NCBI GenBank assembly: GCA_015059305.1
Contig: SVAQ01000003.1
Span: 105,925 to 169,924 of the forward strand
Source: Bacillota bacterium
GTDB taxonomy: Bacteria; Bacillota_I; Bacilli_A; RF39; UBA660
DNA: 64,000 nucleotides
Reading direction: 5' to 3'
A model generated the notes under the pieces. It did no database searches. It saw only the letters and a list, made by a program, of their open reading frames with translations, and was not told the DNA's origin. Both the position numbers and the translations under genes were made by a program. Of the stretch, positions 23,804 through 34,486 are shown in pieces (the first letter of the stretch is position 1; each line of letters starts with the position of its first letter).

Positions 23804-26149
23804 TTATTTCTTATCATCTTTACGCATTGCTGCTTGTTGTCTAATACGAGCAGATTGTGTAGCAGCATCTTTTCCTCTTTTCTTATAAGCAGATGCAATA
23901 TCATCCATTGTATGACCAGCTGAATGAGCATGATCAATTCTTGAAAATTCTTTAGATGGATCGTCAGGGTCTACAACATGGCTACCATGTGCCTTAAATA
24001 ACTCTTCAAACTCACTTGCAGCAGAAACGATATCTCTATAGTCACTAGCTTTAGTACCAGCTGCATAATCTCCAGACATAGCTCTATCTTGAATAATAAG
24101 TCTAGATTCCTTCCATAATTGAGTATACATTGAATCTAAATCAGCGATTCTCTTACCATGCTCAGTTGCAACTGCTTCAATAGCCGCTTGATATCCATCA
24201 TTATCAAATGTTCTAAACGAAGCTTCTTGAACGGCTTCTCTAGCAGCTTTACAAGCATCATCATATTTTTTCTTATCAAATACTCCACCTACATTAAATT
24301 CAGCAGAATTTTTATCAATCGCTGCTACGGCGTCTCTCCTAGCAGCTTCTAACGCAGTATAGTCAACTGCCGAATAGAATCTGTTCTTATCAACCATACT
24401 TGCAAAATCTGTAGCGCCTCTTTGGCGGGCTATATCAGCTTCTATTGCAGCTAAACTCATACCGCTATCTCTATATTGTTGATATAGTTGCATATAACGA
24501 GCAACTTGATCATCTGATCCTTTAAATTTACTTGGATCCATATCAGCAACCAAAGCAACATTAGATTTGAATTTACCCATCATTTTTTCAGTAGCAGATT
24601 CCATTGCACTTGCTTTTGCATCAAAGTCTTTACCTAATTGAATTGCACCGTCATATTGTTCGGCTCCGCCAGTAGCCCAGTCCTTAATATCATGTCCCCA
24701 GTCAGAAAGACGACCAGTTACAAAATTTTTGCCAGAGGCTCTATATCTCAAATTCCTTGCTTCACGAACATCTCTTGCTCTTACAGTTTCATCTGCACTT
24801 CTTGACGCAGCCATGACAGTTTCTGACCAAGATCCAGCATTTTGTCCTGAGACCGCACCCCTATACGCACCAGTTGCACCACCAGCTATAGTACTTCCGA
24901 TTCCTCTAAAAACTGCTCCAGTTTTGGCTTTTCCACCTTTTGCTTCTTTAACATTATCAGCTGCATGTTTTGCATTTCTAACCATTGATGTTACTCCGCT
25001 TCCAAGTGCAGCTCCGGCAGCAAATGCTCCTCCACCTTTAAGTTTTTCTTTAATACCAAGGCTTACATCGCCAAAGCCAAAAATCTTATCTAGCAATTTT
25101 GATGCTTCTTTCATAAACATGATTATACCCATTATGATAAAGGCATTTCCTAAAAGTTCTACGCCCCATGAGCAATCCGCACAGTTTGCACCAAAGAAAT
25201 TTAATTCACTAACAATCCTAATTAAGTATAAACCAAGATGCATAATAAATATTCTAATAAATACAGATATAAAAGTTTGAACTGTAGCTTTGCGCCAATT
25301 ACCAAATATATCATTATCTGGAATTACACGTGCAGCGATAGTAATTGGAGATATAATCTGATAAAAAGCTAACCTACACACGCGAAGTGCTAGGTCAAAA
25401 CAGAAAGATAATATTACATAAACTAAAAACCCACCTGCTATAAGTGAAACAAACCAGCTAAAGTCGACTCCACCATTTCCCGCATTAAGAGCAAACGCTT
25501 TATAAGCATTAAAGCCAATTCCATTTTGAACACCAACTTTTAATTCTGCTAAACTACATCCGCCCTTTGATGAACAGTCGATTTTTACTGTTTGACCAGC
25601 TTCATTTTTATATGAATATACCTTTGTCTTACTTTCATTAGTTGTCGATTTATCTGCAGCTGAGCTATTACCACTAGTAGAAACGAAGAATGCTTCAAAT
25701 ACAGTAGCAGCCATTTTAACACCTTGTTGTTCAATTGATTTATTTGCATTAGAATTTGCAGAAGTAGTACTATTAAAAAATTTATTAATAACATCAGATT
25801 CGATAATTGCTTCTTGTACATTAAAAGCAAAGGAAAAAATTGATGGCATTATTACAATTAAAATAAATGACGTAACAATGTTTTTAATCATTTTTTCAAC
25901 ACTTGAACCGCCTTTATTTTTATCCGGGTCTACTACTAATAGCAAGAAGTTATATGCCATAATAAACAGCATTACTACGCCTAAAATAATATAAACCTTT
26001 TCCGTTAACGCTTGATAATGATGATTTTCAAAAATATTAGTATTTGCTAAAACTGAAAAAATTTGGAATAAATATCCCGCAATATTATATAAAACAGCTA
26101 CTAGCATAATTAAAAATCCATAAAGTAATTCTATAAGCCAATCCCACAT
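23804..26149 (-). CDS. VirB6/TrbL-type polytopic channel protein
   Basis: 781 residues. The N-terminal half (about 1-390) has some seven hydrophobic segments, for example LYGFLIMLVAVLYNIAGYLF, VYIILGVVMLFIMAYNFLLL, LVYVILSFCFDLAL and FIIMGIIMFM. A long outer loop (about 130-220) carries two cysteines. The C-terminal half is soluble, starts with an Ala/Gly-rich stretch (KLKGGGAFAAGAALGSG) and becomes charged and helical. This is the layout of VirB6/TrbL proteins, which form the inner-membrane pore. SD GGGAGG precedes the ATG. The 400-residue cytoplasmic tail is longer than in simple VirB6 proteins. Confidence 0.85.
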   Translation of the reverse strand: MWDWLIELLYGFLIMLVAVLYNIAGYLFQIFSVLANTNIFENHHYQALTEKVYIILGVVMLFIMAYNFLLLVVDPDKNKGGSSVEKMIKNIVTSFILIVIMPSIFSFAFNVQEAIIESDVINKFFNSTTSANSNANKSIEQQGVKMAATVFEAFFVSTSGNSSAADKSTTNESKTKVYSYKNEAGQTVKIDCSSKGGCSLAELKVGVQNGIGFNAYKAFALNAGNGGVDFSWFVSLIAGGFLVYVILSFCFDLALRVCRLAFYQIISPITIAARVIPDNDIFGNWRKATVQTFISVFIRIFIMHLGLYLIRIVSELNFFGANCADCSWGVELLGNAFIIMGIIMFMKEASKLLDKIFGFGDVSLGIKEKLKGGGAFAAGAALGSGVTSMVRNAKHAADNVKEAKGGKAKTGAVFRGIGSTIAGGATGAYRGAVSGQNAGSWSETVMAASRSADETVRARDVREARNLRYRASGKNFVTGRLSDWGHDIKDWATGGAEQYDGAIQLGKDFDAKASAMESATEKMMGKFKSNVALVADMDPSKFKGSDDQVARYMQLYQQYRDSGMSLAAIEADIARQRGATDFASMVDKNRFYSAVDYTALEAARRDAVAAIDKNSAEFNVGGVFDKKKYDDACKAAREAVQEASFRTFDNDGYQAAIEAVATEHGKRIADLDSMYTQLWKESRLIIQDRAMSGDYAAGTKASDYRDIVSAASEFEELFKAHGSHVVDPDDPSKEFSRIDHAHSAGHTMDDIASAYKKRGKDAATQSARIRQQAAMRKDDKK

Positions 26150-26163
26150 ATTTTTTACCTCCC

Positions 26164-26586
26164 TTACATTATTCCACAGGTATCATAAGCACCTATTAAT
26201 AATAATATAGTTTTTACAACCATAGGTAAGAAAAACAACATAACAGCATATGCTAAACGTGTAAATGCTGTTTTTGCTAATGGTTTATACATTTCTTTAT
26301 CATCACCTAGTAAGGCTTTTGCAAAGTCAACAATTGTTAAAAGAATGCATAAAACAATACCAGCATACTTAATAATATCTAAAATCATTTGTAAATAATA
26401 TGCTAACGTTCCATCTTCATTAGGATTACCAAACATACTTTTACATTCCGCACTTACATTTGCTAAAACCTCCATGGTTTCTTCATTTTGCATTAAAATT
26501 TCGCCTTGTTTTTCATGTGCTGACACACTAGTCAAACCTAAAAACATGGTAAATAGGGCCAAAAATAATAATGTTATTTTTTTCAT
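26164..26586 (-). CDS. Pilin-like (VirB2/TrbC-type) secretion protein
   Basis: 140 residues. Signal sequence (about 1-23, MKKITLLFLALFTMFLGL then VSAHE), a short polar stretch with a Cys, and two hydrophobic helices (about 70-90 and 112-132) separated by a charged loop GDDKEMYK. This is the VirB2/TrbC pilin pattern. It pairs with the similar gene at 26649; both contain VSAHE at the cleavage site and an FLP(M)V / FIPTIV block in the second helix, so they are probably diverged duplicates. A conserved terminal Cys could form a disulfide outside the cell. Confidence 0.82.
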   Translation of the reverse strand: MKKITLLFLALFTMFLGLTSVSAHEKQGEILMQNEETMEVLANVSAECKSMFGNPNEDGTLAYYLQMILDIIKYAGIVLCILLTIVDFAKALLGDDKEMYKPLAKTAFTRLAYAVMLFFLPMVVKTILLLIGAYDTCGIM

Positions 26587-26648
26587 AAGACAACTACCTT
26601 CCTACTATACGCTTATAGTATATATCATTTTTTTATTTTTCGAAATAA

Positions 26649-27098
26649 TTATTTTGAATATTTTGATATTAAATTATTACAAGAACTTATTGATGTTAAA
26701 CATTTACCGCAATCAGTAAATTTCGCTTTTGTTGTATCATAGCCTTGTGCTACAGACAAGATTGCATAAACAATGGTTGGAATGAAAAACACAAATACGC
26801 CAGTACAAAATCTCGCTAGAAAAAGAGGAAAAAATTTTTTAATATCTCCGTCATCCCCTTCGATAACTGCTTTTGCTAAATCCTTTATACCCATTATAAT
26901 AAGTAGTACAGGTACCATTACTTTAATTACTATTATAACTATCGCTATAATTCGCATAGCTTTTAATACTCCAACATCATGACAAACAACATTTCCAGTA
27001 TTTATCGCCAAATTTAAACCCATTTCATGCGCAGACACCATTGTTACTCCTAAGAAAAACATGATTAATACTAACGCTATTTTTTTGGTAATCTTCAT
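26649..27098 (-). CDS. Pilin-like (VirB2/TrbC-type) secretion protein, first gene of operon
   Basis: 149 residues from ATG 27098; an in-frame TTG at 27107 is too close to the SD AGAAGG (27111-27116). Signal sequence to VSAHE, two membrane helices (about 50-72 and 94-118) around a charged EGDDGDIKK loop, then a Cys-rich tail with CGKCLTSISSC. Two-helix pilin shape, as in the neighbour at 26164. First gene of the secretion operon, 30 bp after a strong promoter. The extra cysteines are unusual for pilins of this type and may stabilise the outer surface (inference). Confidence 0.8.
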   Translation of the reverse strand: MKITKKIALVLIMFFLGVTMVSAHEMGLNLAINTGNVVCHDVGVLKAMRIIAIVIIVIKVMVPVLLIIMGIKDLAKAVIEGDDGDIKKFFPLFLARFCTGVFVFFIPTIVYAILSVAQGYDTTKAKFTDCGKCLTSISSCNNLISKYSK

Positions 27099-27127
27099 AT
27101 TATGCAAGTACCTTCTTTCTCTATCTA

Positions 27128-31986: not shown

Positions 31987-32625
31987 TTATTTAAATGTTA
32001 TTTCTTTTTTATCATGTTCAATTATAATTTTTTTTGGAGCTTCTCCTTTTTGAATAGATTCATAAAATTCAATAAATTCCATTTGGTATTTCTGTAATAT
32101 ATCAAGTATTTGTTTTCTCTCCTTATTATTAAATATTTCTTCAAATTTTCTTTTGTCGCCTTTCATTTGTGTTAATGTATTTAATTCGATTCTTATGCAA
32201 TCATTGTTACCCTTTTTATATAGATGAACATGCGGTGTATCTTTATGTTTTCCTTCATTTGCATTTATTCTTATATTAGCTAATTCACTAATTAATGCAC
32301 CATTTCCACCGCCAAGCCCTATAATATAGTGAACAAAAATTTTTTTATCAATACCATTTAAGGTTAAAAATTTTTGTAAGTTAAAATTTATATTAGGGTT
32401 TATATATTTGTTTGCTACTTTGATTCTAAACCTTTCTTGTAACTCAATATTATCAGGAATATATCCAATATCCAAACACTTATATATATACAATAAAAAG
32501 TTTTTTATTGTTGTTTTCGAACGAAAGGTATATTCATACGAGTTACTTATTCTTTTAAAAAAACTTTCTTCGCAACAATCATTATCAATATCTTCATCTA
32601 CAAACTCAATCGTTATTTTTCCCAT
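31987..32625 (-). CDS. Hypothetical protein with a possible DUF4160-like segment
   Basis: 212 residues, soluble and charged. The region around residues 125-150 has HKDTPHVHLYKKGN then RIELN, which recalls the PHVHV-type motif of the small DUF4160 family found near toxin-antitoxin genes. The rest is not recognised. A glycine-rich LGGGNGA precedes it. SD GAGGAGA. Next to a 185-bp gap (31801-31986) in which I see nothing. Function unknown. Confidence 0.6.
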   Translation of the reverse strand: MGKITIEFVDEDIDNDCCEESFFKRISNSYEYTFRSKTTIKNFLLYIYKCLDIGYIPDNIELQERFRIKVANKYINPNINFNLQKFLTLNGIDKKIFVHYIIGLGGGNGALISELANIRINANEGKHKDTPHVHLYKKGNNDCIRIELNTLTQMKGDKRKFEEIFNNKERKQILDILQKYQMEFIEFYESIQKGEAPKKIIIEHDKKEITFK

Positions 32626-32803: not shown

Positions 32804-32895
32804 AAGCGCATAAAAATTATATCATAGCCTTCTTCTTTGTGCAACATAAAGTATCATATAAGTCAAGATAAATCATATATTAAATATGTCAACAC

Positions 32896-32924
32896 TAGAC
32901 ATTTCAACAAAAATGTGGTATTAT
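32896..32924 (+). promoter_or_regulatory. Promoter of the large structured RNA
   Basis: -35 TAGACA (32896-32901), 17-bp spacer, extended -10 TGG-TATTAT (32919-32924). Predicted start near 32931. The promoter at 33439 is almost the same sequence. Confidence 0.75.
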
Positions 32925-32930
32925 TATCGG

Positions 32931-33431
32931 CGTGGTGCATTATGCTAGTCACAAACACCATTTGAAGACGGGGCTAAAAATCCGTCAATTGATTTCGACA
33001 CTTTATATATTTGCTTCTTCGGCCCAAGTTGGGGTGAGTATATAATTTTAAATATTAGGGAAGGCGTAATGGCATACGACTGAACCCCTACTATTAGATA
33101 ACAGAAACTTAAAATCATGTTGTGCGTGGTTATGAGGGATTAAACTAATTAGATCTGTTTATGAAATTGTAACTGCAAAAGCAAATAAGAATGATTTGTT
33201 TGTGTCAGAGAAAATCTCTAGCGTGTAGCTTACCATAAGGATTGAAGTGCGGACTATGTGGCAATCGAGTAATTATTTAGGTGACTAATAATTATATTCC
33301 ATAAAGGAGAAATCGCCTACGGGTAACCAAGGGAAGGTTTATAGAGAAATTCAACTCGACCAAAGCCGTAAAATTAATTTATGGTAAACCATAGCTTTAC
33401 TGCGTTATAACTATGTTATAACGTTTTTTTT
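32931..33431 (+). ncRNA. Large structured non-coding RNA, probable OLE RNA
   Basis: About 500 nt with no plausible ORF, its own promoter and a strong terminator. Local helices are visible: TGGTG/CACCA around a GCAT/ATGC hairpin (32934-32972), GACGG/CCGTC (about 32967-32987), GGGGT near 33030 against ACCCC near 33090, and ATGGT/ACCAT (33381-33392). The next gene encodes a small membrane protein resembling the DUF21-like OapA, the protein partner of OLE RNA in other anaerobic Firmicutes. OLE RNA is about 600 nt, so the size fits. tmRNA, RNase P and group I intron were considered and do not fit. The identification rests on size, structure and neighbour, not on an alignment; an Rfam covariance search (RF01071) would decide. 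Confidence 0.65.
33403..33431 (+). terminator. Terminator of the large RNA
   Basis: Perfect 9-bp stem CGTTATAAC/GTTATAACG, 3-nt loop, then T8. It closes the non-coding transcript 8 bp before the next -35. Confidence 0.92.
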
Positions 33432-33438
33432 GTGCAAT

Positions 33439-33467
33439 TAGACATTTTATATAAAATATGGTATTAT
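33439..33467 (+). promoter_or_regulatory. Promoter of the OapA-like gene
   Basis: -35 TAGACA (33439-33444), 17-bp spacer, extended -10 TGG-TATTAT (33462-33467). Nearly the same as the RNA promoter at 32896, including the flanking TAGACATTT and GGTATTATTA. Confidence 0.75.
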
Positions 33468-33507
33468 TACATGCGCAATTGATTTTAATTGCAAGGAGGA
33501 AAAAAGA

Positions 33508-34026
33508 ATGAAAAAAAATAACTGGATATATCAAGTGTTCTTATGGACATTTATATTATCTATAGTATTCAGTTATGGAACCAATATAATATCTTCTAAT
33601 TCATCTACTATAATTAATATAATAATTATTTTATGCGTAATTGCAATTGGAATATTATTTGATATGCTTGGCACAAGTTCCCTTACAAGCAAAGAATCTT
33701 CTTTTCACGCTATGAACGCAAAAAAAATTAAAGGAGCTAAGCAAGCTATTAGTTTAATTCGTAATAGCGTAAAAGTTTCAAGTGTATGTAACGACATTGT
33801 AGGCGATATTTGCGGTATTATTTCTGGTGGTTTGGGGGCTGTGTTAGCAATTGATCTTGCTAGTAAGTTTGATATTAACATTACTTTAATCACAATAATT
33901 GTATCCGCAATTGTTTCAGCGTTTACCGTAGGTGGAAAAGCAATATTTAAACGAGTTGCTGTGAGAAATTCTGATAAAATATTATTTGCATTAAGTAAAT
34001 TTATCTACTTTTTCAAAAGAAAATAA
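33508..34026 (+). CDS. oapA: Small DUF21-like membrane protein, probable OapA (OLE-associated protein)
   Basis: 172 residues with about four membrane segments (about 10-28, 35-53, 90-112, 122-145). The central part (GILFDMLGTSSLTSKESSF, then AKKIKGAKQAISLIRN and NDIVGDICGIISGGLGA) follows the pattern of DUF21, the CNNM-type membrane domain linked to magnesium handling. In Firmicutes with OLE RNA the gene immediately downstream encodes such a protein, OapA, which binds the RNA and holds it at the membrane. SD AAGGAGG. It lies 77 bp after the RNA terminator and has a matching promoter. The OapA call depends on the RNA being OLE; the membrane and DUF21-like character is seen directly. Confidence 0.72.
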   Translation: MKKNNWIYQVFLWTFILSIVFSYGTNIISSNSSTIINIIIILCVIAIGILFDMLGTSSLTSKESSFHAMNAKKIKGAKQAISLIRNSVKVSSVCNDIVGDICGIISGGLGAVLAIDLASKFDINITLITIIVSAIVSAFTVGGKAIFKRVAVRNSDKILFALSKFIYFFKRK

Positions 34027-34066: not shown

Positions 34067-34486
34067 ATGATTGTCTCATACACTACCAAAGATGTAGAGT
34101 TACTAGCCCGTATTATAAGAGCCGAAGCTTTAGCCGAGGGAGATCTTGGTATGTTGATGGTTGGAAACGTAGTTGTTAACCGCGTTTTAGCAGATTGCTT
34201 AACTTTTAAAAATATTAATACTGTTTATGATGCTATTTATCAAAAAAATCAATTTGTTGGCACCGAAAGCTCTTTATTTCAAGCTAGTCCTACTGCCAAA
34301 GAAAAAGAACTTGCTCGACGCGTACTTAACGGTGAATATTATTACCCTGCTACTAACTCGTTATGGTTCTACGCTCCTGGAAACGTTTCTTGTAGAAAAA
34401 CTTGGTATGATCAAGCTTTAGCAGGATCATATAAAAACCATTGTTTTTATAAACCAGATCCAGGCATTTGCAATGAAATACATTAA
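34067..34486 (+). CDS. Cell-wall hydrolase, SleB/CwlJ family
   Basis: 139 residues, all of it a Hydrolase_2 (SleB-type) domain: LLARIIRAEALAEGD contains the catalytic Glu, then VGNVVVNRVL and NSLWFYAPG with the aromatic/Pro pattern of the family. In spore formers such enzymes degrade cortex peptidoglycan. Here there is no signal peptide and no cell-wall binding domain. Forty bp after the OapA-like gene, in the same direction and possibly co-transcribed. SD TAGGTG. The export route is unclear. Confidence 0.88.
   Translation: MIVSYTTKDVELLARIIRAEALAEGDLGMLMVGNVVVNRVLADCLTFKNINTVYDAIYQKNQFVGTESSLFQASPTAKEKELARRVLNGEYYYPATNSLWFYAPGNVSCRKTWYDQALAGSYKNHCFYKPDPGICNEIH

What the first reader, a model, noticed from the sequence alone, without database searches (positions are those of the whole stretch)
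32896..34026. Probable OLE RNA with its OapA-like membrane protein
Seen directly: a roughly 500-nt ORF-free transcript unit with its own promoter, dense helices and a strong terminator, immediately followed by a 172-residue protein with four hydrophobic segments and a DUF21-like core. Established: OLE RNA (about 600 nt) occurs in anaerobic and extremophilic Firmicutes, and the adjacent oapA product binds it and holds it at the membrane. Inference: this locus is an OLE/OapA system, perhaps a short variant, in a probable gut-type organism outside the extremophiles where it was first described.
Basis: partly seen in the sequence, partly recalled or inferred. Interest (0 to 1): 0.85.

Follow-up and report, generated by a model that had tools for sequence, protein, structure and literature searches.

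The report
Shortened OLE RNA with membrane partner
This is a shortened but otherwise typical copy of OLE, a large structured bacterial RNA whose exact function is unknown, lying next to the gene for the membrane protein it binds; this short form has already been described from uncultured gut bacteria, but relatives show that the RNA can shrink further still.

Summary
Window 32916-33408 (+) matches Rfam RF01071 (OLE) over the whole model: 221.4 bits, cut-off 50, E 4.8e-61. The 172-aa protein behind it is OapA: Pfam CNNM (DUF21) above cut-off, the DxxxD motif, invariant in 46 of 46 aligned relatives, and a CorB/CNNM-like predicted fold. The RNA lacks P7, P8 and the k-turn sequences. That is the published 'variant 2' of RF39-type gut bacteria (PMC11332333), so this is a new member of a known kind.

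Added here from relatives: three genomes carry a 378-381-nt OLE that lacks P5 and P6 as well; P7-P8 loss recurred (at least five changes on an OapA tree), while the A-rich P4 loop, P3 and domain 2 persist; ole-oapA is missing as a unit from the same site in two relatives; 0 of 145 genomes of the surrounding family matched MpfA's CorC_HlyC domain or OapC's L7Ae family, although only 97 of 145 had OLE, so MpfA does not stand in for OLE there.

Most likely working: an OapA-anchored RNA dimer for stress and Mg2+ homeostasis, without OapC. Moderate interest.

The parts
32896..32924 (+). promoter-like site of ole (TAGACA, 17 nt, TATTAT, extended -10)
   Evidence: the motif TAGACA-N17-TATTAT occurs at only two places on both strands of the 64 kb, here and before oapA. 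Consensus match only.
32916..33408 (+). OLE RNA, short form without P7 and P8
   Evidence: RF01071, 221.4 bits, E 4.8e-61, model 1-616
32941..32948 (+). P3, 5' strand (pairs with 33218-33225)
   Evidence: 8 of 8 pairs in the window; consensus pairs with compensatory changes
32967..32986 (+). P4 hairpin with the A-rich loop (CUAAAAA), published dimer contact
   Evidence: sequence; UAAAA found in 99 of 100 OLE sequences scored
33022..33026 (+). L5 GCCCA, published kissing-loop partner of L6
   Evidence: sequence; kept in 46 of 47 short forms
33068..33075 (+). L6 AAUGGCAU
   Evidence: sequence; GGCAU kept in 47 of 47 short forms
33218..33225 (+). P3, 3' strand
33402..33424 (+). intrinsic terminator-like hairpin of ole, T-run behind it
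33439..33467 (+). promoter-like site of oapA, 29 of 37 bases identical with that of ole
33508..34026 (+). oapA, 172 aa, CNNM/DUF21 membrane protein with DxxxD (D96, D100)

Best explanation
An OLE ribonucleoprotein locus of the short ('variant 2') kind. A structured RNA of about 490 nt is made from its own promoter and ends at its own terminator; oapA follows with a promoter of nearly the same sequence. OapA, a CNNM-fold membrane protein, holds the RNA at the membrane. The RNA probably pairs with a second copy through the A-rich P4 loop and the P5-P6 loop contacts, with its P3/P3.1 helix (12 pairs) at or across the membrane, and works in adaptation to stress and Mg2+. It does so without the k-turn that OapC binds and probably without OapC. 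Shown here: identity of RNA and protein, which RNA elements are kept or lost, the pair as a unit, no OapC or MpfA match in the surrounding family. Taken from the literature on full-length OLE: OapA binding, membrane localisation, dimer, stress and Mg2+ phenotypes. Inferred: that these hold for the short form.
Against: No expression, binding or phenotype data for any short OLE. The short form has lost the P9.3 GGCC kissing loop (0 of 55 short against 22 of 37 full), one of the published dimer contacts; the palindrome AGAUCU in the window's loop is absent from its nearest relative L001. Kretsch et al. also name L7 in a dimer contact, and P7 is gone. Within the genus of the nearest relative only 4 of 10 genomes have OLE, so it is dispensable there. 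The fold of OapA stays below Foldseek E 0.001 (best 3.8e-3), and the profile search of solved structures found no CNNM (best E 0.82, another protein).
Confidence: 0.85

Rival explanations
1. A decaying OLE: the short RNA is a relic on its way out in reduced genomes and no longer functions.
For: P7, P8, the k-turn and most of P9.3 are missing; ole-oapA is absent altogether in 6 of 10 genomes of the genus, with two clean empty sites.
Against: Long runs of invariant sequence in 46 short forms, compensatory changes in 71 of 111 pairs, intact oapA with invariant motif residues, promoter and terminator in place.
Confidence: 0.06
2. The protein is a minimal Mg2+ transporter of the CNNM kind and the RNA serves mainly as a leader that regulates it.
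For: CNNM fold; in the mini loci the RNA runs into oapA with no terminator; MpfA's CorC_HlyC domain matched in 0 of 145 genomes.
Against: In the window a terminator and a second promoter part the two; in 5 of 72 loci the RNA lies more than 500 nt from oapA; published OLE acts in trans as an RNP (PMC9723947 passages). The sequence cannot tell whether OapA moves ions.
Confidence: 0.06
3. A different RNA family that resembles OLE by chance.
For: None; the only other Rfam match in the stretch is tsr24 at E 0.75.
Against: E 4.8e-61 over the whole model next to an OapA-like gene.
Confidence: 0.01

Closest known systems
OLE variant 2 of RF39-type bacteria (Fernando and Breaker 2024, PMC11332333)
   Same: OLE RNA without P7 and P8, with OapA, without OapC; gut-type MAGs as nearest relatives.
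   Different: No difference found in kind.
Full-length OLE RNP of Halalkalibacterium halodurans and Clostridium
   Same: P3, A-rich P4 loop, L5, L6, P10 to the 3' end, and OapA with DxxxD.
   Different: No P7, P8, k-turn or long P9.3 arm; OapA lacks the K/R-rich N-terminal tail that those paired with full-length OLE have (median 27 and 25 residues more).
MpfA/CorB (CNNM Mg2+ exporters)
   Same: Fold of the transmembrane domain.
   Different: An extra first helix, no CBS or CorC_HlyC domain, and the DxxxD motif that PMC11332333 gives as distinctive of OapA.

Membership tests
OLE RNA (RF01071) | covariance-model score above the curated cut-off | tested here: met
   221.4 against 50 bits, model 1-616
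OLE RNA (RF01071) | ole and oapA in tandem | tested here: met
   99 nt between match end 33408 and oapA start 33508
OLE variant 2 | P7 and P8 entirely missing | tested here: met
   Rfam alignment replaces those positions by 7+7 nt; alignment with full forms; P8 signature 0 of 47 short forms including the window
OLE variant 2 | host in the RF39 clade | not testable with these tools
   no genome of the window is held; relatives reached through loci carry no GTDB names
OapA | CNNM-like (DUF21) membrane domain | tested here: met
   32.2 against 28.4 bits; fold
OapA | DxxxD motif | tested here: met
   D96 and D100 invariant in 46 of 46
OapA | binds OLE RNA at the membrane | not testable with these tools
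   needs a binding assay
OLE RNP with OapC | k-turn at J4a/5 with J6/7 and an L7Ae-family OapC | tested here: not met
   k-turn motif and J6/7 absent in the window; L7Ae 0 of 145 family genomes, 0 of 10 of the nearest genus. The window's own genome could not be searched.
OLE RNP with OapB | OapB gene and its P13 site | not tested
   no OapB query was run; absence in RF39 is from PMC11332333

The most novel reading that the evidence does not exclude
The three 378-381-nt relatives (L027, L029, L032) define a minimal OLE, a third reduced class: P5-P8 are gone, leaving P3, the A-rich P4 loop, a remodelled P9 with a UGAUCA palindrome in 3 of 3, and domain 2, still beside oapA. With the window's form they make a natural deletion ladder (P7-P8 first, then the P9.3 kissing loop, then P5-P6), which says that the core device is the membrane helix P3 plus domain 2 plus OapA, and that the P5-P6 dimer contact, OapC and MpfA can all be absent.
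Probability: 0.5. Interest if true: 0.6.

Novelty: new member of a known kind. Interest (0 to 1): 0.42.

Why it matters
OLE is one of the largest conserved bacterial RNAs without a known biochemical function. The window's member is ordinary for its clade, but the clade shows which parts can go. Fernando and Breaker left the variant-bearing species out of their correlation analysis (PMC11332333, section 5), and the forms here fill that gap: a natural series of deletions that points to the smallest working RNA, one small enough (about 380 nt) to make structure work on domain 2 easier.

Tried and rejected
P9.3 kissing loop in the window: AGAUCU lies in the loop, but L001 (78% OapA identity) has no palindrome there, so it is not claimed. 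A first parser of the P7-P9 stretch misplaced anchors in many short forms; its numbers are not used, one search replaced it. In one search the mini forms lack the anchor UGCAAAA, so their P9.3 palindromes were not scored there; the UGAUCA statement is from reading.

OapA tail and P7-P8 as a coupled pair: suggested (K/R-rich N-terminal tail with full-length OLE, none with short or mini), but L110 and L113 lack P7-P8 and keep tails of 23 and 29 residues, so strict coupling is rejected. K-turn loss as a result of OapC loss: rejected, since full-length OLEs of the same family keep the 5' k-turn motif (14 of 14) although L7Ae was found in 0 of 145 genomes.

MpfA as a stand-in where OLE is missing: CorC_HlyC 0 of 145, CNNM in 0 of 6 OLE-negative genomes of the genus. 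That CNNM search also missed the OapA of G004, so it is not fully sensitive for OapA; the 12 of 14 control genomes that rang show it works for MpfA-like proteins.

The longer shared-promoter pattern that I wrote matched nowhere, not even at the two sites, because it was written wrongly; one search replaced it. A phage origin: no match in 50,697 phage records. Solved structures by sequence profile: only an unrelated chain at E 0.82.

Rows dropped: of 80 OapA loci, L010, L026 and L080 gave no OLE, L071 and L073 only pieces at contig ends, L076 an OLE outside the held stretch, L013 and L078 places that did not read as OLE; 72 loci plus the window were used. L011 was left out of alignment A1. L028 (stop in the stretch given), L014 and L048 were left out of protein alignment A2. 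In one search five of 83 rows had no OapA start that could be scored: L061, L070, L058, L077, L094.

The claim that the mini form is not in print rests in the open library; only PMC11332333 holds both 'OLE RNA' and 'RF39'. Supplements could not be read and most subscription papers are not held.

Full report
IDENTITY. cmscan of the whole window against Rfam 15 finds OLE (RF01071) at 32916-33408 (+), 221.4 bits against a gathering score of 50, E 4.8e-61, model positions 1-616. In the stretch 32850-33480 the only other match is at E 0.75. The alignment shows the 5' GUGGUGCA box, the P4 hairpin with CUAAAAA, L5 GCCCA, L6 AAUGGCAU and the conserved 3' half in place, while two blocks of 44 and 36 model positions are replaced by 7 and 7 nt and a block of 37 by 6 nt. 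These are P7, P8 and the end of the P9 arm; the stem names are fitted from the order of stems in the papers cited below. The ORF at 33508-34026 matches Pfam CNNM (formerly DUF21) at 32.2 bits, cut-off 28.4, and nothing usable in NCBIfam.

SIGNALS. A promoter-like site at 32896-32924, a terminator-like hairpin at 33402-33424 with a T-run, and a second promoter-like site at 33439-33467 suggest separate transcripts. The exact motif TAGACA-N17-TATTAT occurs at only these two places on both strands of the window, and the two sites agree at 29 of 37 bases, so similar control of ole and oapA is likely but untested. The promoter scan of the region as a whole is not above chance. In L052 and in the three mini loci the RNA appears to run into oapA without a terminator (by eye).

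COMPANY. Of the 80 genomes behind these loci, 38 of 40 and 39 of 40 have an OLE match; this set was chosen through OapA. In 67 of 72 loci scored, ole ends within 500 nt upstream of oapA. Among 80 loci no other neighbour of the window is shared beyond L001, L004 and L052, apart from scattered ABC-protein matches and one NrdD match, so the pair itself is the unit. In the genus of the nearest relative 4 of 10 genomes have OLE. In L001 and L052 ole-oapA lies between tRNA-Trp and a SleB-like hydrolase, as in the window. In G085 and G086, without OLE, the same tRNA and hydrolase are about 110 bp apart with nothing between; in G087 an unrelated 377-aa ORF lies there, without a Pfam match. In the other three OLE-negative genomes the hydrolase was not found and the site could not be read.

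PARTNERS. In the GTDB family that contains this genus (G085 is listed in it), 97 of 145 genomes drawn have OLE. In 145 genomes of the same family L7Ae, the family of OapC, was found in 0 and CorC_HlyC, a domain of MpfA, in 0, while 7 and 11 of 14 control genomes rang. The answers list only 20 of the genomes without a match; the listed handles agree with those. Of 24 genomes chosen by hand, 2 had L7Ae, both with full-length OLE and Clostridia-type names. So here OLE losses are not balanced by MpfA, which qualifies the anticorrelation reported for Bacillota in PMC11332333. OapB was not tested.

WHAT THE SHORT FORM KEEPS AND LOSES. Sequences were sorted by length into short (47 with the window), mini (3) and full (23), with 8 more short, 5 intermediate and 14 full from the family. 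By simple motifs: A-rich P4 loop UAAAA 99 of 100; P8 signature 37 of 37 full and 0 of 63 others; 5' k-turn motif 37 of 37 and 7 of 63; J6/7 motif 32 of 37 and 1 of 63; L5 46 of 47 short, 8 of 8, 5 of 5, 0 of 3 mini; L6 GGCAU 47 of 47, 8 of 8, 5 of 5, 0 of 3 mini; GGCC in the P9.3 arm 22 of 37 full, 4 of 5 intermediate, 0 of 55 short, not scorable in mini. P3 is paired at 8 of 8 positions in 55 of 55 short and 3 of 3 mini forms; P3.1 at 4 of 4 in 36 of 55 short (12 with three, 6 with two, 1 not parsed). In the 30 full forms the same script finds 5 to 8 P3 pairs, 7 in most. In 46 short forms 71 of 111 consensus pairs have changes on both sides that keep the pair.

HISTORY. On the OapA tree of 56 rows the labels full, short and mini need 2 changes, the least possible, and the mini forms are one clade (100/100) inside the short group. 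With 19 more family members (75 rows, 44 without P7-P8) the loss of P7-P8 needs at least 5 changes, 5-6 in bootstrap trees: L108, L110 and L113 lie among full forms, apart from the large short clade, and L109 and L111 join the full-length L049. Three of these keep a GGCC loop by reading together with L111, which fits the order P7-P8 first, P9.3 kissing loop next, P5-P6 last. The assignment of the five intermediates rests on the P8 signature and on reading the sequences.

THE MINI FORM. L027, L029 and L032 (isolate names begin with Lapin; rabbit gut is an inference) have OLE matches of 378, 378 and 381 nt at 134-139 bits. P5 and P6 are gone in all three, P9 is remodelled, domain 2 is nearly unchanged. 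L029 folds better than all but 1 of 100 shuffles, z -2.22. [quoted passage not shown]

MECHANISM. From the papers: OapA binds OLE and brings it to the membrane; OLE forms dimers in cryo-EM through the P4 A-rich loops, P5-P6 loops and the P9 kissing loops (PMC12265935 section 4; PMC12286853 section 5, which also names L7); the P3/P3.1 helix, typically 12 bp, is proposed to cross the membrane; P7 and P8 are said not to be dimer contacts. The window's RNA keeps P3 and P3.1 (8+4 pairs), the P4 loop and L5-L6, and lacks the P9 arch, so a dimer held by three of four published contacts is predicted. The mini form would keep the P4 contact and perhaps a new P9 loop. Stress and Mg2+ roles are carried over from H. 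halodurans (PMC11332333 and PMC9723947, passages).

VERDICT. Real, correctly named, and already known as a kind. Its value is as part of a series that strips OLE down. Papers: PMC11332333 abstract, passages, sections 5 and 9; PMC12286853 passages and section 5; PMC9723947 passages; PMC12265935 passages and section 4; others only as search listings.

Noticed in passing
L027, L029, L032: OLE matches of only 378-381 nt without P5-P8, directly in front of oapA.
   Followed up: partly
L103 332-1465: A 377-aa protein without a Pfam match at E 0.01 lies between tRNA-Trp and the SleB-like hydrolase, where relatives have ole-oapA.
   Followed up: partly
L096 (G110:C3:69000-70423): A second OLE in a genome that also has a full-length one (G110:C14); the match lacks model positions 1-53 and runs to the contig end, so it may be a broken copy or an assembly effect.
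   Followed up: partly
34067-34486 (+): SleB-like cell wall hydrolase (PF07486) 40 bp behind oapA, kept there in L001 and L052; published work links OLE with sporulation genes, so the neighbourhood may be worth a look.
   Followed up: no
31987-32625 (-): Protein with a DUF4160 match just above cut-off (PF13711, 23.2 against 23 bits) and a weak match to the DhiT toxin family, E 0.0063, far below that model's cut-off.
   Followed up: no
23804-27107 (-): Three membrane-protein ORFs; the first has a sub-threshold TrbL match (E 0.0031), the other two no Pfam match, perhaps parts of a conjugation-like system.
   Followed up: no
family of G029: Full-length and short OLE occur side by side in one GTDB family, and 48 of 145 genomes have none.
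   Followed up: partly
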